Shown here: positions 2,112 to 30,085 of the stretch, one piece after another
Layout of the letters: each line of letters opens with the position of its first letter
How positions within the stretch are numbered: the stretch's first letter is position 1
Virus record (IMG/VR): IMGVR_UViG_3300042197_000311
Span: 1 to 37,316 of that record
From: a virus
Length of the DNA stretch: 37,316 nt
Strand: one strand, 5' to 3'
The notes under the pieces: generated by a model
What the model was told of the DNA's origin: nothing
Database searches by the model: none
The model's input: the letters and a program-made list of their open reading frames with translations, nothing else
Translations under genes and position numbers: made by a program

Positions 2112-2125
2112 TTTTCGTTTATTGG

Positions 2126-16807: not shown

Positions 16808-16918
16808 ATGAAAGTGAGAAAAAAGCGAAAAAATCTCTTGCGTATCCCGTGGCATTGGATACGTTGCCCCTGTCGCTCGTGCGACACAACACCAAATCAA
16901 ACCAAACCAATCCAATGA
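16808..16918 (+). CDS. Possible 36-aa basic Cys-rich peptide at the head of the early operon
   Basis: ATG at 16808 opens a 36-codon frame encoding MKVRKKRKNLLRIPWHWIRC, then PCRSC and a tail made by the A/C-rich leader. Its TGA overlaps the next ATG as ATGA, as in many genes here. The CxCxxC cluster and basic start are suggestive. However, two hairpins occupy the same bases, so an RNA leader is equally likely. Confidence 0.35.
   Translation: MKVRKKRKNLLRIPWHWIRCPCRSCDTTPNQTKPIQ
16841..16886 (+). promoter_or_regulatory. Two tandem hairpins in the early leader
   Basis: CGTATCC (16841-16847) pairs with GGATACG (16857-16863) across a 9-base loop. TGTCGC (16871-16876) pairs with GCGACA (16881-16886) across the loop TCGT. 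Both stems are perfect. They sit 29-74 bases before the ATG at 16915. No T-run follows, so they do not look like an intrinsic terminator; mRNA stabilisation or a protein-binding leader is possible. Confidence 0.55.
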
Positions 16919-17058
16919 CCAAAAACCAATTCGTAAGCATCTGCGCGATGCTGTATGTGCACCCGGAGGTAGCTCTTGAAAACCAAGAGGTTGTCGCAGC
17001 GCTCCGCAGTGGGGCCAGCGTTGACGAGATCGAGCAGATACTTAGTGCACTATTCTGA
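16915..17058 (+). CDS. Small early protein (47 aa)
   Basis: MTKNQFVSICAMLYVHP opens a 47-aa helical protein ending VDEIEQILSALF. The upstream in-frame ATG at 16849 lies inside the hairpins and gives unlikely sequence, so I start at 16915, preceded by AACCAATCCA. The pattern of HPEVALENQEVVAALRSG resembles short phage or prophage proteins of unknown role. It is the first firm gene of the early block. Confidence 0.72.
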   Translation: MTKNQFVSICAMLYVHPEVALENQEVVAALRSGASVDEIEQILSALF

Positions 17059-17102
17059 CCTAACCCACGCCGGTCCGATCCCGGCACAACCTAACCAAAC
17101 CA

Positions 17103-17465
17103 ATGAGCACGAAAACGCTATTCCCGCAATCCCTCGAAGAATTGATTCACCATGAGGACTTCATGCCATTTGGCAGCAATTCCGACGACTGGCTATCAGA
17201 TCCTGAAAGGATGGCCCGCATTACTGATGCAGCAGAACAGGGTTCTGATGGCTCAACTCATTACGAGGTAATCACCGACTGGCGGGAGTTTTTGAGCCTC
17301 GCCGCTGGTAATGAGGCGAGATTAATTTGGGACAAATTTGATGGCGATGAGCTCGAACAGGCCGAGCGGGAGCTTGAAGCGATTGTTGATTCGATCTCGC
17401 GTGAGATTGACGATTGCGAGGCATGGCACGACAAAAACGGATCATTACATGAGCAAATAGGATAA
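17103..17465 (+). CDS. Hypothetical acidic early protein (120 aa)
   Basis: A 120-aa acidic protein (DDWLSDPERMARITDAAEQG, then WDKFDGDELEQAERELE) with a predicted helical C-terminal half. I do not recognise the family. The leader is CCTAACCAAACCA directly before ATG, with no SD. Its charge would suit a DNA-mimic or host-takeover protein, but nothing specific supports this. Confidence 0.72.
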   Translation: MSTKTLFPQSLEELIHHEDFMPFGSNSDDWLSDPERMARITDAAEQGSDGSTHYEVITDWREFLSLAAGNEARLIWDKFDGDELEQAERELEAIVDSISREIDDCEAWHDKNGSLHEQIG

Positions 17466-17471
17466 AAAAAT

Positions 17472-17496
17472 CCAAACCAAACCAAACCAAACCAAA
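17472..17496 (+). repeat. (CCAAA)5 short tandem repeat in a gene leader
   Basis: Five perfect CCAAA units lie between the stop of the 120-aa gene (17465) and the next ATG (17517). A/C-only sequence continues to the start. Similar CAAACC runs precede 16915 and 17103. It forms an unstructured leader; changes in copy number could tune translation. Confidence 0.85.
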
Positions 17497-17516
17497 CCAG
17501 TAGAAAACCAAAAACC

Positions 17517-17678
17517 ATGAAAACCACGCTGACAACCGCGCAAGCCGCGCACCTATTAATTGACGACGAGAACGCAAATTGGAGCCGTGCCGGGGCGATT
17601 GCCTTTAGTAGGGCGCGGGCGGTTCAGTTTCGAGACCGGGGAAAGCGTCAATCGGCTTGTGGGATTCCAACTAATTAA
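17517..17678 (+). CDS. Small early protein (53 aa), possibly truncated family member
   Basis: ATG at 17517 after AAAACCAAAAACC, stop at 17676-17678. The first 28 residues (MKTTLTTAQAAHLLIDDENA then NWSRAGAIA) resemble the conserved start of a longer phage/bacterial family of unknown function as I remember it. The rest (FSRARAVQFRDRGKRQSAC) is basic and unlike that family, as if a frameshift replaced the C-terminus. The truncation is inference. Confidence 0.6.
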   Translation: MKTTLTTAQAAHLLIDDENANWSRAGAIAFSRARAVQFRDRGKRQSACGIPTN

Positions 17679-17696
17679 CGTGGAAAAGGGGAAACC

Positions 17697-17894
17697 ATGA
17701 ACCCGGCAATCGTCTCGATCCTGCAAACTTGCAGGGACATGCTGTTCCTCGGAGCGTTCGCTCTGCCAGTATTCGTCGCGATGTTCCGATGGGTGTGGCT
17801 GGCATCGTGGCCGCTATCGGTCGCCGGGGCGTGCGCGGTCTGGGTGACGGCTCCGGCTTTGTGGCTGGTGGGCATCCTATGGGCCGCACTCTAA
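17697..17894 (+). CDS. Small membrane protein with two hydrophobic segments (65 aa)
   Basis: A 65-aa protein with hydrophobic stretches at about 15-35 (MLFLGAFALPVFVAMFRWV) and 38-62 (PLSVAGACAVWVTAPALWLV) and a short connecting loop, so probably a two-helix inner-membrane protein. It starts at ATG 17697 after GGGGAAACC. Its place among early genes suggests a host-membrane or superinfection role rather than lysis, but this is a guess. Confidence 0.7.
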   Translation: MNPAIVSILQTCRDMLFLGAFALPVFVAMFRWVWLASWPLSVAGACAVWVTAPALWLVGILWAAL

Positions 17895-17904
17895 AAAAGG
17901 CGAA

Positions 17905-17920
17905 ACCGGGGCAACCCGGT
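17905..17920 (+). promoter_or_regulatory. Perfect GNRA-type hairpin between early genes
   Basis: ACCGGG and CCCGGT pair perfectly around the loop GCAA, 11 bases after the stop of the membrane-protein gene. The stem is GC-rich and the tetraloop is of the stable GNRA class. No T-tract follows, so a role in mRNA processing or stability, or a partial terminator, is more likely than full termination. Confidence 0.55.
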
Positions 17921-17956
17921 CTCCGGCGTGGCAAACCGGACTGATGAGCCTGCCAC

Positions 17957-17966
17957 CTAAAAACCG
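17957..17966 (+). repeat. CTAAAAACCG leader motif, copy 1 of 3
   Basis: CTAAAAACCG also occurs at 18193-18202 and 18996-19005. Each copy lies shortly before an ATG (17981, 18203, 19027). It appears to be a recurring A/C-rich translation leader of this phage. Confidence 0.55.
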
Positions 17967-17980
17967 AACCGACTAAAAAA

Positions 17981-18181
17981 ATGAGAACACAAAAGCAAAT
18001 CCGCGCGGCCTTCTGGGATGCGCACCCTGATCTTGAAGCACACGCGAGAAAGTTGGGCATTAAAACTGCGCCACACAACCGGCACAATGCTGATACCAGA
18101 GTAGCATTCGTGGAATTCGTGGAAAATCTCGCAAGAAACGGTGAGGTGTCCGACAAACTAGCTTTCCGCGCCACACTGTAA
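17981..18181 (+). CDS. Conserved-type small phage protein (66 aa)
   Basis: A 66-aa protein MRTQKQIRAAFWDAHP…, ending VSDKLAFRATL. The pattern 'WxxHP … DTRxAFVxFVExLxRxGxxSxKLAxRATL' is one I associate with a widespread small phage/prophage family of unknown function. The leader GACTAAAAAA precedes the ATG without SD. It is an orphan here, with no hint of role beyond its early position. Confidence 0.78.
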   Translation: MRTQKQIRAAFWDAHPDLEAHARKLGIKTAPHNRHNADTRVAFVEFVENLARNGEVSDKLAFRATL

Positions 18182-18202
18182 ACCAAAACCCGCTAAAAAC
18201 CG

Positions 18203-18547
18203 ATGAAATCCAAATCATTTACAATCGACAATCCCAAGGGAACCGACCATCCCGACAGCCTGCGGCTTTGCATCCCGACCGAAAACGGGGACAGCACCGG
18301 ACTGCGGGTGGCGACGATCCCGCCTGACCGCTACCAGACCGCCGGAGGCTACGTCGAAACCAGACCGTGGCAAGATATGGCAAGATTGCTGGCGTCCGCG
18401 CCGGTGCTTCTCGACGCCTGCCAGACTGCCTTGGCTTTCCTAAAAACGCATTTCCCTGCTGAGCATGGGAACCCAGCCTTGGGCATGGCATGGGGCCGTC
18501 TGGAGGATGCAATCCAAGTCGCGACCGGCGAGGAGGTGGAGTCATGA
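18203..18547 (+). CDS. Hypothetical early protein with ARLLASAPVLL motif (114 aa)
   Basis: A 114-aa protein. The first half is a small polar beta-like region. The second half has the helix WQDMARLLASAPVLLDACQT, a sequence style common in phage early proteins of unknown function. The stop overlaps the next start as ATGA (18544-18547), so both are translated together. The start follows CTAAAAACCG directly. Confidence 0.75.
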   Translation: MKSKSFTIDNPKGTDHPDSLRLCIPTENGDSTGLRVATIPPDRYQTAGGYVETRPWQDMARLLASAPVLLDACQTALAFLKTHFPAEHGNPALGMAWGRLEDAIQVATGEEVES

Positions 18548-18834
18548 ACCCGAAGTGGCAAAACGTTGACGAAATCGCTATCATGCTGGCAGATTCTGGT
18601 ATGGCGGCGTATGACGCATGGGACGAGGCGTGCTGGGTATTCGACATGGCCTGCATGGTCATGCAAAGGCCGATTGCCCTTAGTATGGCGCGGGAGACCA
18701 TTAAAAAGGAAATACCCGACTGGTCGGCGGATACGTTCGGCCGACTTATGGATTTGGCGGCATCTTACGCTGAACACGTCGAACCCGAACCCGAGCCGAG
18801 GAACCCGTGGAGTCTCGACCCTCGGGCGGACTAA
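18544..18834 (+). CDS. Hypothetical early protein (96 aa)
   Basis: A 96-aa protein starting MNPKWQNVDEIAIMLADSG, with aromatic and Met-rich helices in the middle (CWVFDMACMVMQRPI) and an acidic proline-rich tail (EPEPEPRNPWSLDPRAD). A start at 18490 is possible in frame but would overlap the previous gene by 58 bases; 18544 gives the ATGA coupling typical here. The function is unknown. Confidence 0.68.
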   Translation: MNPKWQNVDEIAIMLADSGMAAYDAWDEACWVFDMACMVMQRPIALSMARETIKKEIPDWSADTFGRLMDLAASYAEHVEPEPEPRNPWSLDPRAD

Positions 18835-18896
18835 ATACCCGCCAAAAAATCCGCATCCGTGACGTGGATTAAAACGAACCGAACCCGAGCCGAACA

Positions 18897-19052
18897 ATGG
18901 AAGCAATCTTGTTTAATCTTGCCCATGATCTTGCAGCCATGACTGGCATATGGATTATCCTGTGGGTCATAGGTGCGCTACTCACTCATGCCCTGCTAAA
19001 AACCGAAACCGAACCAACTAAAAACGATGAACCTGCGAGAAGTGACGATTAA
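18897..19052 (+). CDS. Small single-pass membrane protein (51 aa)
   Basis: ATG at 18897 (leader CCGAGCCGAACA) to TAA at 19050. The hydrophobic helix lies at about 12-36 (TGIWIILWVIGALLTHALL) and is followed by a charged tail (KTETEPTKNDEPARSDD). The tail is encoded by the A/C-rich spacer and overlaps the next gene by 26 bases. The helix makes this credible; the overlap lowers confidence. Confidence 0.55.
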   Translation: MEAILFNLAHDLAAMTGIWIILWVIGALLTHALLKTETEPTKNDEPARSDD

Positions 19053-19287
19053 AAGAAGTAAACCCGACGAATACGACATACGAACGTACACGCTCACCGA
19101 GGCGCGTATGCCTTGGCTTGAGCCGAAAAAGACCGTGGTGCTGATGCCAGTAAAAAGGTGGTATCACAAGCCGAAACCGTCCATTTTCGTGGGATGGAAC
19201 ATGGTGAACCTTGAGCGAGCCGAGTTTGCCAAGCTCCTCAAAAAGATCCGAGCCGAGAATCGCGAGAAAACGGAGGTGGCAGCATGA
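19027..19287 (+). CDS. Hypothetical basic protein (86 aa)
   Basis: An 86-aa basic protein (MNLREVTIKRSKPDEYDIRT…) with a hydrophobic patch (KKTVVLMPVKRWYHKP) and a Lys/Arg/Glu helix at the end. I do not recognise it. It ends in an ATGA overlap with the DnaA-like gene and so may work with it. Its start follows CTAAAAACGA. Confidence 0.7.
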   Translation: MNLREVTIKRSKPDEYDIRTYTLTEARMPWLEPKKTVVLMPVKRWYHKPKPSIFVGWNMVNLERAEFAKLLKKIRAENREKTEVAA

Positions 19288-19652
19288 TAACCGACTTAAA
19301 AATGACCGACCCGAGAACAGCCGAGTTTGACGCGCTGGTGGCAGTGGTCTGTGATGAATACCGACTCGACCCGGAAAGGGTGGTTTCTAAAAGGCGAACC
19401 CATGATGTGACGACCGCTAAAAACATCATCGGCGCGATCTGGAGCGAGCATAATAAATACGAGGACACGGCTCGGAGGCTCCATTGGGACAGTCCTGCGG
19501 CTATCTACGCTGCTCGCAAAAGGGTGGCACAGTTGCTCGACGACCCGAGGCACGCCGCGAGGATTGCGAGGATCTTCCAAAGGCTGGCGGAGGCATCTCC
19601 GTGGCTTATGGTGGAGCCCGAGCCAGCTAAAACCCAGCAAATACAAGACTAA
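19284..19652 (+). CDS. DnaA domain-IV-like DNA-binding protein (122 aa)
   Basis: A 122-aa protein. Residues about 27-85 resemble the C-terminal DNA-binding domain of DnaA. A basic segment RVVSKRRTHDVTTAKNIIGA stands where DnaA has its R…E.T..S...IG stretch, followed by a recognition region ending AAIYAARKRVAQLL (DnaA: HTTVLHA-kki). There is no AAA+ domain, so it is a stand-alone DNA binder. It could mark the phage origin or recruit the host replisome, and it sits in the replication cluster with the helicase loader far downstream. The similarity is by eye. Confidence 0.65.
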   Translation: MITDLKMTDPRTAEFDALVAVVCDEYRLDPERVVSKRRTHDVTTAKNIIGAIWSEHNKYEDTARRLHWDSPAAIYAARKRVAQLLDDPRHAARIARIFQRLAEASPWLMVEPEPAKTQQIQD

Positions 19653-19653
19653 A

Positions 19654-19854
19654 ATGATTCGACTCCTCTCCATCGACGAACTGGCGGAACACCTAAAAAT
19701 TCCAGAAAAAGTGCTTGCATTGCTCGTCGTGGAGGGGAGAATCCCTCATCGAATGGTGGCTGGGTGGCCATTGTTCGACCCAACAAACCTCGGCCCAGTA
19801 GTGGCTGAACTAACCAGAAGACTAAAATGGGAAGAAAAAGAAAACCAAACTTGA
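19654..19854 (+). CDS. Excisionase/MerR-like small HTH protein (66 aa)
   Basis: ATG at 19654 lies 1 base after the previous stop. The N-terminal segment MIRLLSIDELAEHLKIPEK is a helix-turn-helix of the excisionase/MerR type, and VVEGRIPHRMVAGWPLFDP matches its wing. No integrase accompanies it, so a transcription or origin-binding role is more likely than excision. An upstream in-frame ATG at 19564 would bury it in the previous gene. Confidence 0.7.
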   Translation: MIRLLSIDELAEHLKIPEKVLALLVVEGRIPHRMVAGWPLFDPTNLGPVVAELTRRLKWEEKENQT

Positions 19855-20042
19855 TTGAGATCACCGTAAAAGAAAAACACGGCCCTCATCTGTTGAATAA
19901 ATTAAGATTAAGCAGCGATATGCTTGTGGATGAATCATTCGAGACATTCCGCGATCAGGTCATTGCAATCATTTACAGAAAAACACAAACACCGAACACC
20001 GATGGAAACACCGACACAAACACAGGAAACACCGAAGGCTGA
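19827..20042 (+). CDS. Hypothetical basic early protein (71 aa) with Asn/Thr tail
   Basis: A 71-aa protein. MGRKRKPNLIEITVKEKHGP is basic, the middle is helical, and the tail is a low-complexity NTDGNTDTNTGNTEG. It overlaps the HTH gene by 28 bases and the RecT-like gene by 41. The tail is encoded by an ACCGA/ACACA-rich stretch that doubles as the RecT leader. The body looks coding; the tail may be a by-product. Confidence 0.58.
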   Translation: MGRKRKPNLIEITVKEKHGPHLLNKLRLSSDMLVDESFETFRDQVIAIIYRKTQTPNTDGNTDTNTGNTEG

Positions 20043-20760
20043 GATCAGCCTCGACGTTCAGCAATCAATGGCCCTTGCCACAGTGCAGGCCGAAACACAA
20101 GCGTTTGAGCTTGCCCAGCGGCAGGCAAAGATGCTTGCCAGCAGTAGCCTAGTCCCAAAGGACTTCCAAGGAAATGTGGCGAACTGTGGAATCGCGATCA
20201 ACGTGGCTAAAAGGACGCGCCTCGACCCGCTTATGGTTTGCCAAAACCTAGCGATCATCCACGGGCGACCAAGCTGGAGTGCAACTGCGCTCATCGGCAT
20301 GATCAACTCATGCGGGCGATACACGCCGCTGCGATTCGTCTTTGATAACGAGGACGAGCCGACATCGTGCTACGCTGTGGCGACCGATAAAGAGTCCGGC
20401 CAAGAACTCAAGGGTGAGAAGATCACCTTGGAGATGGCGAAGAAGGAAGGATGGTCAACAAAGAACGGATCGAAGTGGCTGACAATGCCGGGACAAATGC
20501 TGCGCTATCGTGCTGCCTCATTCTGGAGCCGTGCCTATGCCTCCGACTTGTCTCTTGGTTTCTACACCCAAGACGAGGTTCGCGACTTTGCTGCTCCTCA
20601 TCGAAACGTCACACCGAATCCGTTCGTAAAAGAGGAACCCGTGGTGACTGAACCAGAAGTGGTGGAGGCTGAAGTGGTACAGCCCGAGCCAGAACCAGAG
20701 ATTAAGAACCGCAAACTAGCTGCCAAGCTGGATGCAATCATCGAGGACATGGTGTCATGA
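20002..20760 (+). CDS. recT: RecT-like single-strand annealing protein
   Basis: A 252-aa recombinase that anneals complementary single strands, acting with the exonuclease downstream. The core begins near residue 17 (ISLDVQQSMALATVQAETQA). NCGIAINVAKRTRLDPLMVC is the usual RecT 'C..A..l.LDP' region, and KWLTMPGQMLRYRAASFWSR followed by DLSLGFYTQDEV matches its C-terminal signature. The last 60 residues are an acidic PEP/VV-rich linker and a basic tip. I start at METPTQ (20002); an upstream ATG at 19924 gives 26 extra unlikely residues. Confidence 0.86.
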   Translation: METPTQTQETPKAEISLDVQQSMALATVQAETQAFELAQRQAKMLASSSLVPKDFQGNVANCGIAINVAKRTRLDPLMVCQNLAIIHGRPSWSATALIGMINSCGRYTPLRFVFDNEDEPTSCYAVATDKESGQELKGEKITLEMAKKEGWSTKNGSKWLTMPGQMLRYRAASFWSRAYASDLSLGFYTQDEVRDFAAPHRNVTPNPFVKEEPVVTEPEVVEAEVVQPEPEPEIKNRKLAAKLDAIIEDMVS

Positions 20761-20782
20761 ATATATTACCAAATAGAAAACT

Positions 20783-21187
20783 ATGAATATGGAAGCATCA
20801 GAGGAATGGAAGAATAGAAGCCGAGTTTATCCAGTAGACATCACCATTGGGTTTATTGATGGAGCTTCAGAAGATCTAATAAATTATGACCATTTCTATG
20901 AAATGATATGGTTTAGGAGATGCTGGAAAGTTGATTCCATACATAAAGTTTATGATGCACAAGAATGGTGCTTATCAATGCTAAACAAGGACATGGATTT
21001 TTTTAAGGAAAAAAACAATACTGAATTTCCAGATATGGTAATCGGATGCGTTATAGGAGAACCGACCATGACAAAAGAGAACATATTCACGTGGCATCGT
21101 GGTTGGATTTTCGCCAAACCAACCCAAAATGCGTACAAGAAATTTTTGGCAACCGGAAGGGAGCTTGGTGACCATGAAAACGACTAA
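20783..21187 (+). CDS. Hypothetical AT-rich accessory protein (134 aa)
   Basis: A 134-aa protein rich in Trp, Tyr, Phe and Met (YEMIWFRRCWKVDSIHKVY, IFTWHRGWIFAKPTQNAY) with acidic patches. I recognise no family. The bases are much AT-richer than in the RecT-like gene before it, as in the zinc-ribbon gene at 22456 and the pair at 1372-2111, suggesting recent acquisition. It lies between the annealase and exonuclease genes, which are usually adjacent. Confidence 0.68.
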   Translation: MNMEASEEWKNRSRVYPVDITIGFIDGASEDLINYDHFYEMIWFRRCWKVDSIHKVYDAQEWCLSMLNKDMDFFKEKNNTEFPDMVIGCVIGEPTMTKENIFTWHRGWIFAKPTQNAYKKFLATGRELGDHEND

Positions 21188-21338
21188 AAAAACGGCGGCA
21201 GTCAACAAATACCTTGCAGAAAAGTTAGTGCGTGATCGTCCTTTTTTACGGGATAAGAGCGCAAGAAGTAAGGACATGGCGCAACTTTCCTATTGCATTG
21301 ACCATGCGCTGCTTTACTTAAAGAACAGACAAGCATGA
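21174..21338 (+). CDS. Small basic protein (54 aa)
   Basis: MKTTKKTAAVNKYLAEKLVR opens a 54-aa basic helical protein ending LLYLKNRQA. The ATG at 21174 overlaps the previous gene by 14 bases, and the stop overlaps the next start as ATGA. An upstream in-frame ATG at 21099 is less likely because it would overlap by 89 bases. No function is evident. Confidence 0.6.
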   Translation: MKTTKKTAAVNKYLAEKLVRDRPFLRDKSARSKDMAQLSYCIDHALLYLKNRQA

Positions 21339-21619
21339 ACTCAACTGGTAAAAAGCACACTTCTGGATGGCATGGTGTAAAGACGATGGCATCACAAGGA
21401 GTGGGTGGATTCCGAACAATCGGAGAGATCCGCCGATACGAGCAAGCAAGGAAACTCGAAAAACGCGAGGAGTACTTGCGAATGCTTGAAGAAATGGAGC
21501 AGGAAGAGTTGAAGAAAAAACAACGACCCAAGATAGTAACCTATGAAATTACAGAAACCAATGAAACTGACTGGTATGAAGTCCTCGGACTACCACTCGG
21601 AAACCGCATCACCGACTAA
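21335..21619 (+). CDS. Hypothetical basic protein with coiled coil (94 aa)
   Basis: A 94-aa protein. A Gly/His-rich start (MNSTGKKHTSGWHGVKTM) is followed by a long charged helix (RRYEQARKLEKREEYLRMLE), probably a coiled coil. The C-terminal 20 residues overlap the exonuclease gene in another frame. The ATGA overlap with the 54-aa gene supports translation. Confidence 0.62.
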   Translation: MNSTGKKHTSGWHGVKTMASQGVGGFRTIGEIRRYEQARKLEKREEYLRMLEEMEQEELKKKQRPKIVTYEITETNETDWYEVLGLPLGNRITD

Positions 21620-22358
21620 CCTTGGTGGTTCTGTCAGTAAGTCGATGCTGTGGGCATTCAACCAGTCTCCATTCAAGTGGAGATTCGGAAAGAAGTCTGC
21701 TCCATCACCGGCGATGCAACTCGGCAGCCTAGTCCACTTACTCTGCTTCCAGAAAAATGATTTCGAGGAAACCTACGCTATCTCACCATTTGACTCGTTC
21801 CGAACCAAGGAAAGCAAGGAGTGGCGTGAGGACACGGAGAACCAAGGTAAAGTGGTTATCACGGAGGATACCTACGCACATGCTTCGGACATGGCAGACT
21901 GCATCATGAACACAGATCTACTCTTCCACTTGGGTGAGTGCGAGTATGAGGTTGCGGTCAGATCCGACTTCCACGGCATCCCAGTGCAGGGGATGATCGA
22001 CATGGCCCCTAGACATGGGCAGATCCTTGCTGACCTCAAGACGACCAGTAGTATTACCGATGTTGCTGGACTCCAGAGGGCGATCCTCCAGCGGGGCTAC
22101 CACGTTCAAGCAGCAATGTATCTGGATCTATGGAATGCAGCCACAGGGGAATCCCGCGACCAGTTCCAGTTCCTATTCGTCGAAACGGAACCCCCATACG
22201 AACACGCTTGGGTGGAAATTTCTCCGAATTTGCTTGCCAAAGGCCGAGAAGAATACATGAATGCCCTCATGCGATGGATCGACTGCTCGTCTAAAAACAA
22301 GTGGCCGAAGTCCATCGAAGGAATGCAAACCATAGACCTGCCTGCTTGGTATCAATGA
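21543..22358 (+). CDS. PD-(D/E)XK exonuclease (RecE / exonuclease VIII-like)
   Basis: A 5'-3' double-strand exonuclease candidate that would supply single strands to the RecT-like annealase. In 271 residues: LGGSVSKSMLWAFNQSPFKW near 27-46, GSLVH at 61-65, GMIDMAPRHG with D153, the catalytic DLK at 164-166 (ILADLKTT), and the helix RGYHVQAAMYLDLW with Y186 and Q189. These match the DUF3799/RecE nuclease fold. The start is uncertain: ATG 21561 follows ACAGAAACCA, closer to this phage's leaders, and 21576 is also possible. The gene overlaps the previous one by up to 77 bases. Confidence 0.85.
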   Translation: MKLQKPMKLTGMKSSDYHSETASPTNLGGSVSKSMLWAFNQSPFKWRFGKKSAPSPAMQLGSLVHLLCFQKNDFEETYAISPFDSFRTKESKEWREDTENQGKVVITEDTYAHASDMADCIMNTDLLFHLGECEYEVAVRSDFHGIPVQGMIDMAPRHGQILADLKTTSSITDVAGLQRAILQRGYHVQAAMYLDLWNAATGESRDQFQFLFVETEPPYEHAWVEISPNLLAKGREEYMNALMRWIDCSSKNKWPKSIEGMQTIDLPAWYQ

Positions 22359-22455
22359 AAACTTTTCCCGGTGTGGTGGCGAGATGCTTAACGTGTGTTA
22401 GGTGTTTCATGGTTGCATTGCCACCACATCGGGAATCAATCCACAAACCAATAAA

Positions 22456-22809
22456 ATGCCATACAACGAAACAGTTATTACTGGAATACCCAAAGGTTAT
22501 TTGGAATGGTATGTGCCAACCTTTTATTTCCCAAACTATCACGATTTTAAGCCGACATTCCCGAAATGGTGGGAAAACAAAAAAGCTATTTGCTGGAGTG
22601 ATGATTGCAGAAATGAATTTAACTTGTCTGATGTTGATGTCGAAGACCCGCATTGTGATAGAAGTGATTTTTGGGGAACGGAATGTTACATCAAATTTAG
22701 ATGTCCTAAATGTAATTACAAAATGGTATATACAGCAATGACGTTGGAGGTAATTGGTGTTCAAATAATTGAGCATTTTAGAAAACACAAACAAACAAAC
22801 AAACAATGA
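22456..22809 (+). CDS. Hypothetical zinc-ribbon-like protein (117 aa)
   Basis: A 117-aa protein with cysteines C46 and C51 (AICWSDDCRNEF), C67, C77 and C83-C86 (RCPKCNYKM), a pattern able to bind zinc. The N-terminus is aromatic (YLEWYVPTFYFPNYHDF). I start at 22456 after CAAACCAATAAA; an in-frame ATG at 22402 is possible. The gene is AT-rich, like other accessory genes here. Its last residues (HKQTNKQ) come from the CAAA repeat that also forms the SSB leader. Confidence 0.68.
   Translation: MPYNETVITGIPKGYLEWYVPTFYFPNYHDFKPTFPKWWENKKAICWSDDCRNEFNLSDVDVEDPHCDRSDFWGTECYIKFRCPKCNYKMVYTAMTLEVIGVQIIEHFRKHKQTNKQ
22788..22805 (+). repeat. (CAAA)4 tandem repeat before the SSB start
   Basis: Four CAAA units plus CA precede ATG 22806. 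The repeat lies inside the 3' end of the zinc-ribbon gene, so it is both coding and leader. A unit gained or lost would shift that protein's end and change the SSB leader length. Confidence 0.8.
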
Positions 22810-23108
22810 TTACTACATCAATAAACGTGACGAAGATAGATAAGAGTGCCATCAAGGATCATAAGAGCGGAGGGAAATACCTTGCTCTTACGCTGATGGA
22901 AAACAAAAACGGCCCAGACCAGTATGGCAACGATGGATACGTTGTGCAGGACATCGGTAAGGTACGCCGGGAAGCTGGCGAGCGAGGCCCGATCATTGGA
23001 AACTGGAAGAATGTTGGGGGATTCACGAAACGTCCTACTGTTCCGCAACAACCAGCACCAGCAGCAAAAAGCAGTTGGGATGATGAGGTAGACGAAATTC
23101 CATTTTGA
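22806..23108 (+). CDS. ssb: Short single-stranded DNA-binding protein (100 aa)
   Basis: A 100-aa protein. The body has short beta-like segments (ITTSINVTKIDKSAIKDHKS, GKYLALTLMEN, GYVVQDIGKVRREAG). A Pro/Gln/Ala linker follows, and the tip DEVDEIPF matches the acidic SSB C-terminal tail that docks replication and repair proteins. It is shorter than bacterial SSB (about 170 aa) and its OB fold is not obvious by eye, so the tail and the gene order (between exonuclease and RuvC) carry the call. Confidence 0.78.
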   Translation: MITTSINVTKIDKSAIKDHKSGGKYLALTLMENKNGPDQYGNDGYVVQDIGKVRREAGERGPIIGNWKNVGGFTKRPTVPQQPAPAAKSSWDDEVDEIPF

Positions 23109-23111
23109 TCC

Positions 23112-23420
23112 ATGACACTTCCCTACCTAGTAAAAGAGGTGGCCCAAAAGGCTGGATATGTATCCATGACAACTCCGTATGACATCCTTCCAAGAACTCC
23201 GAAGGACATTAGGGAGCGCAACCAATGGATGCTGGATCGTGTCATTGCGGATATGCAGGGATGCGATGCTGTCCTAGTGGAAACAGCCAAGGGGCCGGAA
23301 GTCTGGCGGCACGTTTCGGAACTAGACATAGACGAAAACGGAATCCGCCGTGGATCATCTGGAAAGCAGCACCATGTACCAAGTTTGAGACGTGGAAAGA
23401 AGGTAAAGGATGAAAAGTGA
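23112..23420 (+). CDS. Hypothetical early protein (102 aa)
   Basis: A 102-aa protein with a helical N-terminus (LPYLVKEVAQKAGYVSM), a middle with RERNQWMLDRVIADMQGCDA, and a basic end (HHVPSLRRGKKVKDEK). I do not recognise it. It lies 3 bases after ssb and overlaps the next gene by 11 bases, so it belongs to the recombination operon. Confidence 0.68.
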   Translation: MTLPYLVKEVAQKAGYVSMTTPYDILPRTPKDIRERNQWMLDRVIADMQGCDAVLVETAKGPEVWRHVSELDIDENGIRRGSSGKQHHVPSLRRGKKVKDEK

Positions 23421-23712
23421 CATAGACAGGCTTTGCCCGACACCGCCAGCGGACAAACCTTGGGTGAGTGAAACATCAGTTCTTGTGAAGGCACTACGCA
23501 TCCTTGCCGAGGACATCCAATCAGATGATGGCGTGGCAAACGCTTGCATCTACGAGGCTGCGGAACGTATCCAGCAATTATCCGACCAACTTGCCAAGTG
23601 GAAGCAATGCGCTCACGATCTTGCTATCTACGGCATGAGCAACTCTTGGCAATCACTAGACTGGCAGGAGGCCATGACGCGATACGTCAAGCTGCGGGAG
23701 GGAGAACAATGA
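23410..23712 (+). CDS. Helical early protein, paralogue of the gene at 25514 (100 aa)
   Basis: A 100-aa helical protein. Its C-terminal part QLAKWKQCAHDLAIYGMSNS followed by WQEAMTRYVKLREG aligns with ELERWRNCARQLAALGMSKD and WNKAMEFYRKLQSG in the protein at 25514-25960. This LxxWxxCAxxLA pattern is one I associate with small phage proteins that often begin MSDTPRTD. The function is unknown. It ends in an ATGA overlap with the RuvC-like gene. Confidence 0.7.
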   Translation: MKSDIDRLCPTPPADKPWVSETSVLVKALRILAEDIQSDDGVANACIYEAAERIQQLSDQLAKWKQCAHDLAIYGMSNSWQSLDWQEAMTRYVKLREGEQ

Positions 23713-24137
23713 CAACCTACCTTGGCATAGATCCGGGCTGCAACGGTGGCATCGCGTGGATCACGGACTGCAAGGCGTGTGCTGAAAAGATGCCTGACAC
23801 GCTGAAAGATCTGTGGGAGCTGGTTCTTGACATCAAGATGACCGGCGACTGCACTGCGGTACTTGAGTCGGTTTCCAGCAGTCCGCAGATGGGCGTTGTT
23901 TCCAGTTTCAGTTTTGGCCGAGGCTACGGCAACTTGGAGATGGCACTCACCGCAGCATCAATCCCATTTGAGCGAGTCCGTCCGCAAGTCTGGCAGAAAG
24001 CACTTGCCTGCATGACGAAAGGCGATAAGAACGTGAGCAAGCGTAGAGCGCAGGAGTTGTTCCCAAGCATAAAAATTACTCACGCAATCGCGGATTCCTT
24101 GCTCATCGCGGAATACAATAGGAGGACAAACCAATGA
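23709..24137 (+). CDS. RuvC-like Holliday junction resolvase
   Basis: A 142-aa RNase H-fold nuclease. D8 lies in TYLGIDPGCNGGIAW, E53 in TAVLESVSS, and D129 in THAIADSLLIAEYNRR. These are the three carboxylates expected for RuvC-family resolvases, which cut four-way junctions and branched DNA before packaging. The length is typical of the family. The start at 23709 forms an ATGA overlap with the previous gene; a longer frame from 23544 adds an unlikely N-terminus. Confidence 0.87.
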   Translation: MTTYLGIDPGCNGGIAWITDCKACAEKMPDTLKDLWELVLDIKMTGDCTAVLESVSSSPQMGVVSSFSFGRGYGNLEMALTAASIPFERVRPQVWQKALACMTKGDKNVSKRRAQELFPSIKITHAIADSLLIAEYNRRTNQ

Positions 24138-24889
24138 GCAAACGTGTGATCTCATGGTTTTCATGCGGTGCTGCCTCTGCCGTAGCAACGAAGTTAGCAA
24201 TTGAAAAATATGTGGAAGTAGACATCTACTATACAGATACTGGAAGCGAGCATGACGACAATCCGCGATTCATTTCTGACTGTGAGAAATGGTTTGGACG
24301 TAAGGTCACGATCTTGAAAAACGATAAATACGCAGATGCGATGGAGGTATGTGAAAAGTCACGATATTTATCATCACCACAAGGTGCGCCATGCACTGGT
24401 GCGATGAAGAAAGAGCCAGCCAATGGAATCTGGAAAATAGGTGATGTGGAAATTTTTGGGTACACTGCTGAAGAAAGGCATCGTCTTGCTCGCTGGAAGA
24501 AGGACAATCCAGAAAGGATTATTGAGTGTCCACTAATTGACAGACACCTAGATAAAAACGACTGCCTTGGGATGCTGGAACGTGTAGGGATTGAGATCCC
24601 GATGATGTACAAACTTGGCTTTAGGAATAACAACTGCATTGGTTGTGTAAAGGCGCGTGATTCAATAGATTACTGGAAGCGGGTTAGAAAGCATTTCCCA
24701 GCGCAATTTGAGCGAGTTGCAAAACTTGAAAAAGAACTCGGATATGCAATCAATCGGGTGACTAGAAATGGAGTAAAAATTGATGTGCCGCTTTATGATA
24801 TTCCTCCCGGCGATCCAACTGGGGCTGACCCAAAAATATCTTGCGGATTATTCTGCATGGCTGAATCAGATTCATTTTCAAAACCATGA
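24134..24889 (+). CDS. PAPS-reductase-family PP-loop protein (251 aa)
   Basis: The N-terminus RVISWFSCGAASAVATKLA is a PP-loop, the ATP-pyrophosphatase/PAPS-reductase nucleotide site, in the phage-type variant SCGAAS. YYTDTGSEHDDN follows as the second family motif. Cysteines at 87, 168 and 171 (CIGC) and 237 and 241 (CGLFC) could hold a metal or iron-sulfur cluster. Proteins of this family occur in many phages without a known substrate; sulfur metabolism, tRNA or DNA thiolation are options. The gene overlaps both neighbours by 4 bases. Confidence 0.82.
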   Translation: MSKRVISWFSCGAASAVATKLAIEKYVEVDIYYTDTGSEHDDNPRFISDCEKWFGRKVTILKNDKYADAMEVCEKSRYLSSPQGAPCTGAMKKEPANGIWKIGDVEIFGYTAEERHRLARWKKDNPERIIECPLIDRHLDKNDCLGMLERVGIEIPMMYKLGFRNNNCIGCVKARDSIDYWKRVRKHFPAQFERVAKLEKELGYAINRVTRNGVKIDVPLYDIPPGDPTGADPKISCGLFCMAESDSFSKP

Positions 24890-25389
24890 CACTCCCAACC
24901 TACGCAATTAAAATCTACCTTTCAGGCCCGATTGAAGTGGCCAAGCAGGTAATTCGTGAACACATTTTGGAAAAACCGTTATGCGTAACCATTGATCCAA
25001 CCACTTTTATTTACGTTGGTGGTGAGGAAGCTGGGTATGTTGTTGGGTTATTGAATTACCCGCGATTCCCGATGTCACCAAATGAGTTGAACGTAAGAGC
25101 AGATATTTTGGCTGAATTGTTAATCAAAAAGACATTTCAACGATCTGCTTTAGTTGTTAAACCAGAAGCGACCAAATGGATAACTTTGGAGTCAATTGCA
25201 AAAAATGACAAACCAATGAAACAAGAGTACATCACAGATGGTTTTGGCAACGAGTGGGCCAAATGCGGCCCAGACTGCGACATGGAAGTTGTGCGTCCCG
25301 GCAAGGTACAATGTTCGTGCATTGAATTTGAGTCGCAGGTAGAGACTGATTTGACCAACGAAACACAATCCAAACAAAATCATGAGTGA
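24886..25389 (+). CDS. Conserved-type phage protein of unknown function (167 aa)
   Basis: A 167-aa protein. The first 100 residues (AIKIYLSGPIEVAKQVIREH, FIYVGGEEAGYVVGLLNYPR) look like a family I recall from several phages, a small alpha/beta domain with no assigned role. The C-terminal 60 residues hold cysteines (CGPDCDMEVV, VQCSCIEFES) that could bind a metal. It is coupled to the PP-loop gene by ATGA, so the two may act together. Confidence 0.7.
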   Translation: MTLPTYAIKIYLSGPIEVAKQVIREHILEKPLCVTIDPTTFIYVGGEEAGYVVGLLNYPRFPMSPNELNVRADILAELLIKKTFQRSALVVKPEATKWITLESIAKNDKPMKQEYITDGFGNEWAKCGPDCDMEVVRPGKVQCSCIEFESQVETDLTNETQSKQNHE

Positions 25390-25438
25390 TACGCCAAGAA
25401 CTAACGACCTTGCCGGATGTTGGATAAATCAGACATAA
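25382..25438 (+). pseudogene. 18-codon fragment MSDTPRTND (possible gene remnant)
   Basis: ATG 25382 to TAA 25436 encodes MSDTPRTNDLAGCWINQT. The opening MSDTPRT is, from memory, the usual N-terminus of a small phage protein family whose C-terminus carries LxxWxxCAxxLA. That C-terminal pattern appears 0.3 kb downstream in the gene at 25514. This may be the detached front of that gene. The evidence is only the short motif. Confidence 0.35.
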
Positions 25439-25513
25439 ATGCGATTAACGACTAGTTTATCGTACACTGTGGCCAAACGCCGACAAACAAAATATGAACC
25501 CGAACGCCGACAA

Positions 25514-25960
25514 ATGAACGCTGTGATGAGAACGACAAAAACGGACGAAAAGTGTCTAGATTTGCTTAATCAAGCACTGCGCACCAAGGAAGCAGTTGCT
25601 CGCTGGATGCAGGGCAAAGTCAACTGGGCAGAAGAAATGGCAAAGCTGGAGCTTGAGATTTACGAGATAAAAAACCAACTTCAATGCGCCATGTGGTGCT
25701 TAAATAAGGCGAAAGGACACGAGTGCTACCTTCGCGGAGAACTCGAACGTTGGCGCAACTGCGCTCGGCAACTGGCTGCACTTGGTATGAGTAAAGATTT
25801 TCAGAACAGCGCAGAATGGAATAAAGCAATGGAGTTTTATCGGAAATTGCAATCTGGATGCGATCAAGTTCAGAATAAACAAGATTCATTTGAATCACCA
25901 GACCACGACAACGACGATTACACCTATGCAGAAACATACAACCCACAACAAACAAGATGA
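25514..25960 (+). CDS. Coiled-coil early protein, paralogue of the gene at 23410 (148 aa)
   Basis: A 148-aa helical protein. KLELEIYEIKNQLQCAMWCL is a coiled coil, and ELERWRNCARQLAALGMSKD matches the 100-aa protein at 23410. The tail is acidic (ESPDHDNDDYTYAETYNPQQ). Start choices are 25439, 25514 and 25526. ACGCCGACAAA occurs at 25477 and 25504, each just before an ATG, so the leader looks duplicated; I prefer 25514. The stop overlaps the next start as ATGA. Confidence 0.66.
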   Translation: MNAVMRTTKTDEKCLDLLNQALRTKEAVARWMQGKVNWAEEMAKLELEIYEIKNQLQCAMWCLNKAKGHECYLRGELERWRNCARQLAALGMSKDFQNSAEWNKAMEFYRKLQSGCDQVQNKQDSFESPDHDNDDYTYAETYNPQQTR

Positions 25961-26139
25961 AACCCAGAACTTATAAAATCATGAATGACTGCGTCGGTAA
26001 CGGCATCGAATATGGCTGGAATCGAGCACATAAGCATACCGACCATCCGACACCAGAAGTCATCAAAGATTGTATTGGGGAAGCCATCATGCTGGAAATA
26101 TCCGAAGATTTTTCTTTTGAAGATGATGAATTAAATTAA
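25957..26139 (+). CDS. Conserved-type small phage protein (60 aa)
   Basis: A 60-aa acidic protein. The pattern NDCVGNGIEYGWNRAHKHTD followed by 'P…IKDCIGEAIMLEI' is one I recall from small phage proteins of unknown function. No membrane segment or catalytic motif is seen. It overlaps the previous gene by 4 bases. Confidence 0.75.
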   Translation: MKPRTYKIMNDCVGNGIEYGWNRAHKHTDHPTPEVIKDCIGEAIMLEISEDFSFEDDELN

Positions 26140-26176
26140 AACTAATCTACAATAAGTTGCAAAAAAACGAAACCAA

Positions 26177-26506
26177 ATGAACAGCCAAGAACTAATAGAC
26201 AATGTACGTCAGTGGGGGATAGATCGAGGAATCACCGGCCCACAAGGGCAAGGGACTCTCATCTCCCAGCTAGACAAAGCCTACGAGGAATACGTTGAGA
26301 CACTCACAGCGGCACACAACAAGGATCGCTACGAGACCATTGACGGCATCGGAGACATGACGGTGTGTCTCATCCTCGCAGCGGAACTTGCAGGAACAAC
26401 TTTCGAGGAATGCCTTGAAGCGGCATGGATGCAAATCCGTGATCGCAAGGGCAAGATGGTAGACGGGAAGTTTGTGAAAGAAAAACCAACCAATACAGAA
26501 CAATGA
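26177..26506 (+). CDS. MazG-like nucleotide pyrophosphohydrolase
   Basis: A 109-aa all-helical protein with the MazG-type metal site. E37, E38 and E41 lie in LDKAYEEYVE, and D56 and D60 in ETIDGIGDMTV. MazG-like enzymes hydrolyse nucleoside triphosphates or (p)ppGpp-like alarmones, and phage versions may adjust the host nucleotide pool during replication. The helix EECLEAAWMQIRDRKGKMVD is also typical. The ATG follows AAAACGAAACCAA without SD. Confidence 0.82.
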   Translation: MNSQELIDNVRQWGIDRGITGPQGQGTLISQLDKAYEEYVETLTAAHNKDRYETIDGIGDMTVCLILAAELAGTTFEECLEAAWMQIRDRKGKMVDGKFVKEKPTNTEQ

Positions 26507-26703
26507 ATACACAAAGCGCAAATAAGAAACTCCGCCAATGGGTGTTGAGCGGCAAGGCAATCACTCCAATCCAAGCCCTTGAGAAGTGGGGTATTTTCCG
26601 ACTTGGGGCAAGAATCCTTGAACTGCGTCAGGAAGGTCACAATATCGTGACAACCATGATGGAGAAGAATGGCAAGCGATTTGCCAAATACCAACTAGCA
26701 TGA
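26503..26703 (+). CDS. Small winged-HTH-like protein (66 aa)
   Basis: A 66-aa basic protein. KKLRQWVLSGKAITPIQALE and FRLGARILELRQEGHNIVTT form a compact helix-turn-helix, and NGKRFAKYQL a terminal wing. This pattern is common in small phage proteins annotated as helix-turn-helix domain. A regulatory or DNA-organising role is inferred. It overlaps both neighbours in ATGA junctions. Confidence 0.77.
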   Translation: MNTQSANKKLRQWVLSGKAITPIQALEKWGIFRLGARILELRQEGHNIVTTMMEKNGKRFAKYQLA

Positions 26704-26903
26704 AGCCACGAAGGGACAACTGGTGCGGCGACAACCTTGCCGAGGAAGCCGAGGATGACGATGATGAAACCCAGCACTTCAACTGGAAGAACAATCCTAT
26801 CCGAGCCTTATTCGACAACCCGTCCCAACGCTCGCACCAGTCGTCCCTAGACTACGATAACGAATTGGACTATTATCTACCCCGCTATGGAAAAGAGATT
26901 TAA
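26700..26903 (+). CDS. Hypothetical acidic protein (67 aa)
   Basis: A 67-aa polar, acidic protein (LAEEAEDDDDETQHFNW, LDYDNELDYYLPRYGKEI) without recognisable family or membrane segment. It overlaps the HTH gene by 4 bases and the next gene by 17, consistent with a coupled operon. It may be disordered. Confidence 0.65.
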   Translation: MKPRRDNWCGDNLAEEAEDDDDETQHFNWKNNPIRALFDNPSQRSHQSSLDYDNELDYYLPRYGKEI

Positions 26904-27132
26904 GAAAGTAGTAGTCAACCCAAAGACGGGCAGGAAGAACACTATCCGCTATGGGCAAGCAGGCCCAGCCAAAGACGGCGGGGATCGCATTAGACCCGGT
27001 ACGGCCAAAGGTAATTCCTATTGCGCTCGCTCTGCCAAGATCAAGGGTGACTGGAAGGATAACCCCAACAGCCCCAACGCACTTTCCCGCAAAAAATGGA
27101 AGTGCCGTGGGAGCAAATCAATGAAGTCATGA
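26887..27132 (+). CDS. Small basic Cys-containing phage protein (NSPNALSRKKWKC type)
   Basis: An 81-aa basic protein. GNSYCARSAKIKGDW, then NPNSPNALSRKKWKCRGSKS, is a signature I recall from many short proteins of environmental tailed phages; their role is not known. The two cysteines (CARS and WKC) could bind a metal. Unlike in many relatives as I remember them, the gene here sits in the early block rather than with structural genes. Confidence 0.75.
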   Translation: MEKRFKKVVVNPKTGRKNTIRYGQAGPAKDGGDRIRPGTAKGNSYCARSAKIKGDWKDNPNSPNALSRKKWKCRGSKSMKS

Positions 27133-27326
27133 GTGCCGGCAAGGGGGACACACCGAGGCCCGTAGATATGAAAGTCTATGGGGACAACTATGACCGAATC
27201 TTCAGAAAAACCAATAGATCCCAAAACATACCGATTCCGCTGGAGGAAGAAAGCCAAACCGGAGGAGCAGCAGACAGTCAAGAGGACTGTCAGTCTGACA
27301 CCGGAAACCCACCAGAGGATTCTTAA
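27129..27326 (+). CDS. Small phage protein of the GKGDTPRPVD type (65 aa), overlapping the next gene
   Basis: The start at 27129 forms an ATGA overlap with the previous stop. MSAGKGDTPRPVDMKVYGDN followed by YDRIF is a pattern I recall in small phage proteins. The remaining 40 residues are acidic and polar (EEESQTGGAADSQEDCQSD). They run in a different frame through the first 149 bases of the following gene. The conserved-looking front supports this frame; the tail may exist mainly because of the overlap. Confidence 0.66.
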   Translation: MSAGKGDTPRPVDMKVYGDNYDRIFRKTNRSQNIPIPLEEESQTGGAADSQEDCQSDTGNPPEDS

Positions 27327-27516
27327 CTACGCTCGCCGCTCCAAAATCGGGTTCTCCAAGGCAGTAGAGAAACTGCTGGACACCGAGGAATCCCGCGCTA
27401 TGGAACCGCTAGTCACCATTGACTGGGACAAGGTGCGCCGGATGAAACTTGGCAACCACTACATGAGTATTGACCTGTTCCGTAGTGGGAACCGCAGAAG
27501 ATATAAACGAAAATAA
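27178..27516 (+). CDS. Ribbon-helix-helix-like regulator (112 aa)
   Basis: A 112-aa basic protein. KRTVSLTPETHQRILNYARR then GFSKAVEKLLDTEES fits a ribbon-helix-helix DNA-binding domain (beta strand, two helices) at residues about 34-75. The basic end (GNRRRYKRK) may add DNA contact. Starts at 27178 and 27190 are both plausible. RHH proteins are common phage repressors, so control of the early operon is a reasonable guess. Confidence 0.72.
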   Translation: MGTTMTESSEKPIDPKTYRFRWRKKAKPEEQQTVKRTVSLTPETHQRILNYARRSKIGFSKAVEKLLDTEESRAMEPLVTIDWDKVRRMKLGNHYMSIDLFRSGNRRRYKRK

Positions 27517-27526
27517 ATCACCGAAA

Positions 27527-28078
27527 ATGAGAGGATTCCCTTCACGCTACAAGAATGCCCCAGAATGTGTCGGAGAGGGTTGGTGGGGACACTACAAGGC
27601 TGCACTCCCTATCGTCGATTCTGGGGGCATTGTGGTGCTTTACGGCGGACATGGTACAGGCAAGACCCGCATGGCCCAGAAGCTAGCCTCCGAAGCCAAG
27701 CCGCCGAACCGCTCCTACAAGGTTTTTGGGGTCTCCAAGGAAGTCCATCCAGTCTACACCACGGCAGTCAATCTGTTCATGCAGATTCGTGACACATACC
27801 GAAGAGATTCCGAGGTGTCCGAGAAGCAACTTTTGGACTCCTACTGCGAAGCCTCGGTGCTGGTCATTGACGAGATCCAAGAGCGTGGCGAGACACAGTT
27901 TGAAGACAGGAAGTTGACCCAGATCGTGGATGCCAGATACCAGCATGAGAAGCCAACCATCTTGATCTCCAACTACAATCGGGAGCAGTTTGCCAAGGCA
28001 CTCTCCCCGGCGATTCTCGACCGCATTCGGGAGAACGGCATAGGGCTGCACTTTGACTGGCCCTCCTACCGAAGGTAA
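27527..28078 (+). CDS. DnaC/IstB-type P-loop ATPase, putative helicase loader
   Basis: A 183-aa AAA+ ATPase. Walker A is at 40-47 (GGHGTGKT), Walker B ends D115-E116 (SVLVIDE), sensor-1 N149 lies in TILISNYN, and an arginine-finger candidate is R166 (AILDRIRE). This is the order of DnaC/IstB loaders, which place the replicative helicase on DNA. No phage helicase is present, so it would recruit the host helicase. I start at 27527 after ATCACCGAAA; 27470 would overlap the RHH gene. Confidence 0.85.
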   Translation: MRGFPSRYKNAPECVGEGWWGHYKAALPIVDSGGIVVLYGGHGTGKTRMAQKLASEAKPPNRSYKVFGVSKEVHPVYTTAVNLFMQIRDTYRRDSEVSEKQLLDSYCEASVLVIDEIQERGETQFEDRKLTQIVDARYQHEKPTILISNYNREQFAKALSPAILDRIRENGIGLHFDWPSYRR

Positions 28079-29020: not shown

Positions 29021-29032
29021 GTTAGTATTGGT

Positions 29033-29272
29033 TTATGGCTTACTGTAAACATTGGATATTTTCCCATTGAGACAAATTTTTCGGCTCCTCAGTTCACCCA
29101 ATTCAATTAGTCTCCTCAAATGTGAAGCTGCCGTGTTCTCCGGCAGTTTACGTCCATCCTTAGATGCTTCTTGGATAAACTGTTTAAGCGTAAACTCATC
29201 CTCACGCTGCACGTTATCGTTAAGCGACTCAAGCGCGGTAAGAAGTGCCGATTTGTTTCCGATTTTTTTCAT
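29033..29272 (-). CDS. Small winged-helix-like protein (79 aa)
   Basis: A 79-aa protein. ALLTALESLNDNVQREDEFT then LKQFIQEA, and NTAASHLRRLIELGELRSRK, form a winged-helix pattern with a terminal wing (ICLNGKISNVY). It lies between the phosphoesterase and the amidase. A regulator of late or lysis gene expression is possible, but only the fold is suggested. The leader is CTAACCAACAAAAACACC. Confidence 0.7.
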   Translation of the reverse strand: MKKIGNKSALLTALESLNDNVQREDEFTLKQFIQEASKDGRKLPENTAASHLRRLIELGELRSRKICLNGKISNVYSKP

Positions 29273-29290
29273 GGTGTTTTTGTTGGTTAG

Positions 29291-30085
29291 TTAGTCTGCG
29301 GTGTAAACTCTGCGATGCACAAGCGGAAGTTCCCCCTTCTCAACCTGCCTCATATCGAGGATGACAACCGATGGTTGAGGAACCGCGTCTGGTACTACCC
29401 GGTGGCCGTAGCGGGTGAGACCTTGCCATGCGCCGGTAATTACGCTGATCTGGTTCCCATCATCCCAAATTCCGTGACGATGCCTGTGAGCGCGGCACAT
29501 GACTTTCGGGACTGCCTTACCTGCTCTCGCACGGCTGTGGGTGAGGTTGCCAAGCATGATTGAATGGGCGGATGCCTCTAGGTAGCTGCGAGCCGTTGCC
29601 GATATGTGGTGCGCAAAATTCATCAATGTTCCGTTGACCTCAAGATCAAGATTGTCCCATGCGTTCTGCCCTGTGTGTGGATTGCGTGATGCACCCAAAG
29701 CACGACCAATGCGGATCTCGTCGTTGCGGCTATGAGCTTCCGTCCCCTTGATGATGTGAAGTTTGTGGCAGGTTTCTGACAAAAAGCCCAGCACTTGTCT
29801 CACAGCGTCTGTCTGGTCGCCGGGATCTGGAGTCATGACCTGCAACGTTTTATGGTGGATACCATCCACAAGATCGCCATTGACGACCAGATCAAAAGCG
29901 TCCTTTCCAATAACCTTCTGCGCCCAGATGAGCATATCCTCCCAGCATTCCCACAACCACTTCTGGAACTCGTTCTGCCCGATGGGATTTCCTTCGTTGG
30001 ACACGAAGTCTTTTGGCCATAGCCCGACAGTGCTGCCAACATGGAGGTCGCTCATCAGCATGACGAGCTTTGATGTAGTTTTCAT
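29291..30085 (-). CDS. Calcineurin-like metallophosphoesterase
   Basis: A 264-aa protein with the metallophosphoesterase motifs in order: D13-x-H15 (SDLHVGS), G70-D71 (VVNGDLVDG), the variant G-T-E-A-H at 114-118 in place of GNHE/D, and H200, H202 and H204 (RAHRHRHG) in place of GHxH. Such enzymes hydrolyse phosphodiesters or monoesters with two metals. The substrate is unknown; DNA, cyclic nucleotides or envelope components are options. It is unusual that it lies within the lysis region, overlapping the HExxH gene by 4 bases. Confidence 0.85.
   Translation of the reverse strand: MKTTSKLVMLMSDLHVGSTVGLWPKDFVSNEGNPIGQNEFQKWLWECWEDMLIWAQKVIGKDAFDLVVNGDLVDGIHHKTLQVMTPDPGDQTDAVRQVLGFLSETCHKLHIIKGTEAHSRNDEIRIGRALGASRNPHTGQNAWDNLDLEVNGTLMNFAHHISATARSYLEASAHSIMLGNLTHSRARAGKAVPKVMCRAHRHRHGIWDDGNQISVITGAWQGLTRYGHRVVPDAVPQPSVVILDMRQVEKGELPLVHRRVYTAD

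What the first reader, a model, noticed from the sequence alone, without database searches (positions are those of the whole stretch)
16887..27530. Genome-wide absence of Shine-Dalgarno sites; A/C-rich leaders instead
On both strands, starts follow leaders such as AACCAATCCA (16915), CCTAACCAAACCA (17103), AAAACGAAACCAA (26177), ACTAACCAACAAAAACACC (29272), CCAATAAACGAAAA (2111) and ACCAATACTAAC (29020). G is almost absent from these leaders. Coupled genes use ATGA overlaps. CTAAAAACCG recurs before three early genes. This suggests initiation on unstructured, possibly S1-bound leaders and is a strong clue to the host lineage.
Basis: partly seen in the sequence, partly recalled or inferred. Interest (0 to 1): 0.6.

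Follow-up and report, generated by a model that had tools for sequence, protein, structure and literature searches.

The report
Phage genes start without Shine-Dalgarno sites
This freshwater virus of bacteria marks most of its gene starts with A-rich, G-poor leaders instead of the usual Shine-Dalgarno ribosome-binding sequence, as viruses of SD-poor hosts such as Bacteroidota and Verrucomicrobiota do; the trait is shared by its own branch of relatives and fits a known kind of translation start.

Summary
Across 62 hand-listed starts, anti-SD pairing is weaker than at internal ATGs of the same genes (mean -1.10 vs -2.77 kcal/mol; <=-4: 13% vs 29%). Leaders are A-rich and G-poor (A .43, C .23, G .15, T .19 vs .29/.22/.26/.23). 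C is not enriched, and G is halved, not absent. SDs are not wholly absent: 5 of 16 ATGA-coupled starts carry strong ones, against 1 of 46 other starts. The window is a near-complete 37-kb podovirus-like genome. SD avoidance marks its whole capsid-protein clade; the sister clade (Phage C75C1) shows none, and a more distant lineage uses SDs. Leader profile, A at -3, a tail-fibre C-terminal domain and a PAPS-reductase gene point most closely to Verrucomicrobia phage P8625, so a Verrucomicrobiota host is favoured over Bacteroidota or cyanobacteria, but no host was identified. Best mechanism: SD-independent start selection by low structure and A-rich (Kozak-like) context in an SD-poor host, with SDs kept at a minority of coupled starts. 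S1 binding is untested. This is a known kind of initiation; the ATGA/SD two-tier pattern is a modest new detail.

The parts
16895..16914 (+). leader of first early gene (ATG 16915), ends aaaccaaaccaatcca
17083..17102 (+). A/C-rich leader of gene 17103-17465
17472..17499 (+). (CCAAA)5.6 tandem repeat upstream of ATG 17517
   Evidence: TRF
17957..17966 (+). CTAAAAACCG copy 1, 14 nt before ATG 17981
18193..18202 (+). CTAAAAACCG copy 2, abutting ATG 18203
18996..19005 (+). CTAAAAACCG copy 3, 21 nt before ATG 19027
26157..26176 (+). leader of MazG-like gene 26177-26506, no SD
   Evidence: non-SD leaders in relatives too
2112..2131 (-). leader of gene 1644-2111 (actaaccaataaacgaaaa)
29021..29040 (-). 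leader of endolysin gene 28355-29020 (ataaaccaatactaac)
29273..29292 (-). leader of gene 29033-29272 (ctaaccaacaaaaacacc)
34641..34664 (-). leader of major capsid gene 33648-34640, no SD; no SD in MCP leaders of the window clade
18530..18543 (+). exception: strong SD (gaggaggtgg) at ATGA-coupled start 18544
   Evidence: -13.1 kcal/mol
19272..19283 (+). exception: strong SD (ggaggtgg) at ATGA-coupled start 19284
   Evidence: -10.8
23697..23708 (+). exception: strong SD (ggaggg) at ATGA-coupled start of RuvC-like resolvase (23709)
   Evidence: -10.8; family
24120..24133 (+). exception: strong SD (aggagg) at ATGA-coupled start of PAPS-reductase-like gene 24134
   Evidence: -10.2; family
30388..30400 (-). 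exception: SD (aggaga) at ATGA-coupled start of SprT-like gene 30082-30387
   Evidence: -7.3; SprT-like match is below Pfam cut-off
13387..13836 (-). tail-fibre C-terminal domain shared only with Verrucomicrobia phage P8625 and Synechococcus phage S-LBS1 among 50,697 phage records

Best explanation
The window is a near-complete podovirus-like phage genome whose genes are matched to a host that makes little use of Shine-Dalgarno pairing, most likely a freshwater Verrucomicrobiota bacterium. Most starts are chosen without SD pairing: an AUG in a G-poor, A-rich, weakly folded leader with A at -3, -4 and -6 (Kozak-like context, as in Flavobacterium). Internal operon genes are reached partly by coupling through ATGA overlaps, and about a third of these coupled starts carry a strong SD embedded in the upstream gene's codons. 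Shown: SD depletion, base profile, low folding, clade-level conservation and the SD subset at ATGA starts. Inferred: SD-poor ribosomes, the host phylum, and the role of A-3 and of coupling.
For: 62 starts vs 634 internal ATGs: mean -1.10 vs -2.77, p=3e-7; G .15 vs .26; A at -3 .55, -4 .60, -6 .58 vs about .28. Same caller on controls: T7 88%, Bruynoghevirus 80%, SAR11 phage 68%, Venkman 67% SD; window 4%, Flavobacterium phages 3-4%, P8625 16% with 23% in its mocks. Clade: free leaders of 111 related contigs 7.9% vs 25% in mocks, p=1e-13; MCP leaders without SD throughout the window clade; clade monophyletic 100/99; AUC .67 vs .51 in the C75C1 clade, p=8e-13. Host hint: tail-fibre C-terminal domain and PAPS reductase (43%) shared with P8625. 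SD-scarce organisms include Bacteroidota and some Verrucomicrobiota, e.g. Akkermansia and IMCC26134; Spartobacteria 10%, Methylacidiphilae 15% SD (PMC10783764). A at -3, -6, -12, -13 as positive determinants: PMC6847099. bS21 is not encoded in 12 records.
Against: No host found: the TerL profile gave only two distant hits (24-25%) in 84,980 species genomes and none in plasmids. No CRISPR-spacer test was possible. The leader profile alone does not separate Verrucomicrobiota from Bacteroidota, and Pseudanabaena phage Pan5 is similar. PAPS-reductase relatives occur in phages of many hosts and the tail-fibre domain is also in a cyanophage. Five strong SDs show SD pairing may not be useless in this host. 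No Verrucomicrobiota genome could be fetched to measure its own leaders.
Confidence: 0.6

Rival explanations
1. Same non-SD mechanism, but the host is a Bacteroidota bacterium whose anti-SD is hidden by bS21/bS18/bS6.
For: Bacteroidota are the main SD-scarce phylum and common in lakes (general knowledge); Flavobacterium phages show the same SD depletion, G depletion and A-3.
Against: GC 41-57% in the clade and unreduced C in the window's leaders resemble P8625 more than the three Bacteroidota phages tested (C log2 -0.01 and -0.08 vs -0.30 to -0.81), though GC content confounds this; no protein match to Flavobacterium phage 11b or crAss001.
Confidence: 0.2
2. Same non-SD mechanism, but the host is a freshwater cyanobacterium; some cyanobacteria are SD-poor.
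For: Tail-fibre domain shared with lake Synechococcus phage S-LBS1; Pseudanabaena phage Pan5 is SD-depleted.
Against: S-LBS1, S-SRP01 and P-SSP7 are not SD-depleted against their own mocks and have A-3 of only .08-.44; no photosynthesis gene was among the annotated proteins.
Confidence: 0.1
3. The leaders are not initiation signals but by-products: composition skew of the coding strand, wrong start calls, or transcription-control repeats (CCAAA, CTAAAAACCG).
For: CCAAA and CTAAAAACCG are local repeats in a region for which almost no relatives were found; some starts are uncertain (19930, 21129, 21543).
Against: The contrast is with internal ATGs on the same strand in the same genes, and the same caller finds SDs in T7 and others; leaders are also less SD-like than their own dinucleotide shuffles (-1.10 vs -1.72, sd .27); MCP starts are conserved across the clade.
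Confidence: 0.08

Closest known systems
SD-independent initiation of Bacteroidota (Flavobacterium johnsoniae; PMC6847099, PMC9976891)
   Same: SD scarcity, G-poor A-rich leaders, A enrichment at -3/-6/-12/-13, low structure, rare strong SD exceptions (rpsU there)
   Different: Leader C is not reduced here; host and ribosome unknown; SD exceptions sit at ATGA-coupled phage genes rather than rpsU
Verrucomicrobia phage P8625 (NC_029047)
   Same: Nearly the same leader profile (log2 A +.62, G -.96 vs A +.47, G -.77), A-3, GC 51%, PAPS reductase, RecT, tail-fibre C-terminal domain
   Different: Long-tailed phage; terminase and capsid show no match to the window; its paper text has no mention of Shine-Dalgarno
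Phage C75C1 (OQ984151) clade
   Same: Homologous TerL (44%), MCP (54%), portal (53%)
   Different: No SD avoidance: 34% vs 21% of mocks, 17% strong SDs

Membership tests
Bacteroidota-type SD-independent initiation | SD scarcity relative to background | tested here: met
Bacteroidota-type SD-independent initiation | A enrichment at -3, -6, -12/-13 | tested here: met
   window A: -3 .55, -6 .58, -12 .50, -13 .42 vs about .28
Bacteroidota-type SD-independent initiation | anti-SD sequestered by bS21/bS18/bS6 in the ribosome used | not testable with these tools
   host unknown; bS21 not phage-encoded
S1-dependent initiation on unstructured leaders | leader less folded than internal sites | tested here: met
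   -5.6 vs -9.2 kcal/mol, but equally so in SD-using T7
S1-dependent initiation on unstructured leaders | S1 binding needed | not testable with these tools
   needs biochemistry
Leaderless initiation | 5' end at the AUG | not testable with these tools
   no transcript data; operon-internal starts cannot be leaderless
P8625-like Verrucomicrobia phages | homologous terminase and capsid | tested here: not met
   only PAPS reductase, RecT and tail-fibre domain match
C75C1-type podoviruses | homologous TerL, portal, MCP | tested here: met
   sister clade in the MCP tree

The most novel reading that the evidence does not exclude
In this phage clade SD pairing has been withdrawn from ordinary leaders and kept for coupled, overlapping starts: strong SDs occur at 5 of 16 ATGA starts vs 1 of 46 others in the window (p=.003), and in the clade, weighted by gene family.122 of overlapping vs .021 of free starts (mocks .029). 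SD would then be a coupling or regulatory element in an otherwise non-SD host, most likely a Verrucomicrobiota bacterium.
Probability: 0.25. Interest if true: 0.5.

Novelty: new member of a known kind. Interest (0 to 1): 0.35.

Why it matters
It extends host-matched non-SD initiation to a widespread, host-unknown phage clade (475 TerL relatives in IMG/VR). It shows the trait differing between sister clades of one phage family, so leader profile can narrow host phylum where spacers are lacking. It also offers a testable question: whether SDs survive as coupling signals in SD-poor hosts.

Tried and rejected
Host by TerL profile in 84,980 genomes: only 24-25% hits. Plasmid searches with TerL and tail-fibre domain: none. 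Phage-encoded bS21 or S1: none. Relatives of early genes 18203 and 19284 in viral contigs, to test whether CTAAAAACCG recurs: one partial hit and none. Conservation of the AGGAGG before the PAPS-reductase gene: a strong SD before a possible start in L235, absent in L236, L237 and others, so not generally conserved. A leader motif pairing elsewhere in 16S (AACC/CCAA): AACCA is mildly enriched over dinucleotide shuffles in clade leaders (48 vs 26.7, z 4.3) but AACC is weak in the window (23 vs 18.3, z 1.5); not pursued as a mechanism. Strong SD before the gene after TerL in relatives comes partly from TerL's Gly-rich C-terminus; the excess at overlapping starts remains after removing it (.101 vs .029).

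Full report
What the window is. It is an IMG/VR virus record whose first and last 240 bases repeat at 97.9%, so the genome is probably near complete (about 37.1 kb). PHROGs give TerL, major head protein, tail fibre, RecT, exonuclease, Holliday-junction resolvase, PAPS reductase, MazG, DnaC-like loader and endolysin. The nearest named phage is C75C1 (TerL 44%, MCP 54%, portal 53%). There are 475 TerL relatives in IMG/VR.

Check of the observation. All quoted leaders precede ATG starts and CTAAAAACCG occurs three times against 0.07 expected. For 62 hand-listed starts I computed pairing of the 17 bases from -20 to -4 with ACCUCCUUA and compared it with 634 internal ATGs of the same genes. Mean energy is -1.10 vs -2.77, and 13% vs 29% reach -4 kcal/mol (MWU p=3e-7, Fisher p=0.005); dinucleotide shuffles of the leaders give -1.72 (sd .27), so leaders are less SD-like than even their own composition predicts. 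Composition is A .43, C .23, G .15, T .19 against .29.22.26.23. So the leaders are A-rich and G-poor; C is at background, and only the early + leaders look A/C because T is low. Several start calls are uncertain, which should dilute rather than create the signal.

Controls. The same simple gene caller finds SDs at 88% of T7 starts, 80% in a Bruynoghevirus, 68% in a SAR11 phage and 67% in Venkman, and 3-4% in two Flavobacterium phages; the window has 4% of its 27 auto-called starts. Low folding around starts is seen in all of these phages, so it does not single out this one.

Exceptions. With the resolvase start corrected to 23709, strong SDs (<=-7) occur at 5 of 16 ATGA-coupled starts, 0 of 19 other close starts and 1 of 27 free starts; ATGA vs rest p=.003, vs mocks p=.004. 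This was found after looking at the data. In 111 related contigs, free leaders are SD-depleted (.079 vs .25) while overlapping starts are not, and keep strong SDs in excess. Removing the TerL C-terminal case leaves .101 vs .029, and weighting by protein family gives .122 overlapping vs .021 free.

Relatives. MCP leaders lack SDs throughout the window clade; the distant L133-L135 lineage has AAAGGAACATCTATC before its MCP. In an MCP tree the window clade (29 rows, 100/99) and the C75C1 clade (26 rows, 99/98) separate, and SD avoidance differs between them (AUC medians .67 and .51, p=8e-13; related contigs are not independent, so the p-value is indicative). SD use therefore varies between clades of one phage family, as expected if hosts differ.

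Host. TerL found no close genome hit and no spacer search was available. Verrucomicrobia phage P8625 has nearly the same leader profile and A-3, and shares a PAPS reductase (43%), weak RecT and a tail-fibre C-terminal domain; that last domain is found in only P8625 and Synechococcus phage S-LBS1 among 50,697 records. S-LBS1 lacks the SD depletion and A-3. SD scarcity is reported for Bacteroidota and for some Verrucomicrobiota (PMC10783764). I therefore favour Verrucomicrobiota, with Bacteroidota second; this is inference.

Mechanism. The profile fits SD-independent initiation with A at -3 and -6 as positive determinants and low structure (PMC6847099). S1 is only one proposed helper and was not tested. 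The P8625 paper text holds no mention of Shine-Dalgarno.

Verdict. A real, well-supported feature of a known kind, with an overstated description; the two-tier use of SDs at ATGA overlaps is the part most worth testing.

Noticed in passing
19284-19652 (+): 122-aa early protein with a sub-threshold DnaA C-terminal helix-turn-helix match (PF08299, E 4e-5, below cut-off); possible replication-origin binder.
   Followed up: no
1-240 and 37077-37316: Ends repeat at 97.9% identity inside the portal gene, suggesting a near-complete circularly assembled genome with a few mismatches (strain mix or assembly).
   Followed up: partly
17472-17499 and 22787-22806: Perfect short tandem repeats (CCAAA)5.6 and (ACAA)5 directly upstream of gene starts.
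   Followed up: partly
16013-16850: Long stretch between the divergent gene blocks with CAACCCACCAAGT repeats and a TGC/GTG-rich segment; no gene assigned.
   Followed up: no
L133, L135: Distant relatives (MCP about 50%, GC 56-57%) use ordinary SDs, unlike the window clade.
   Followed up: partly
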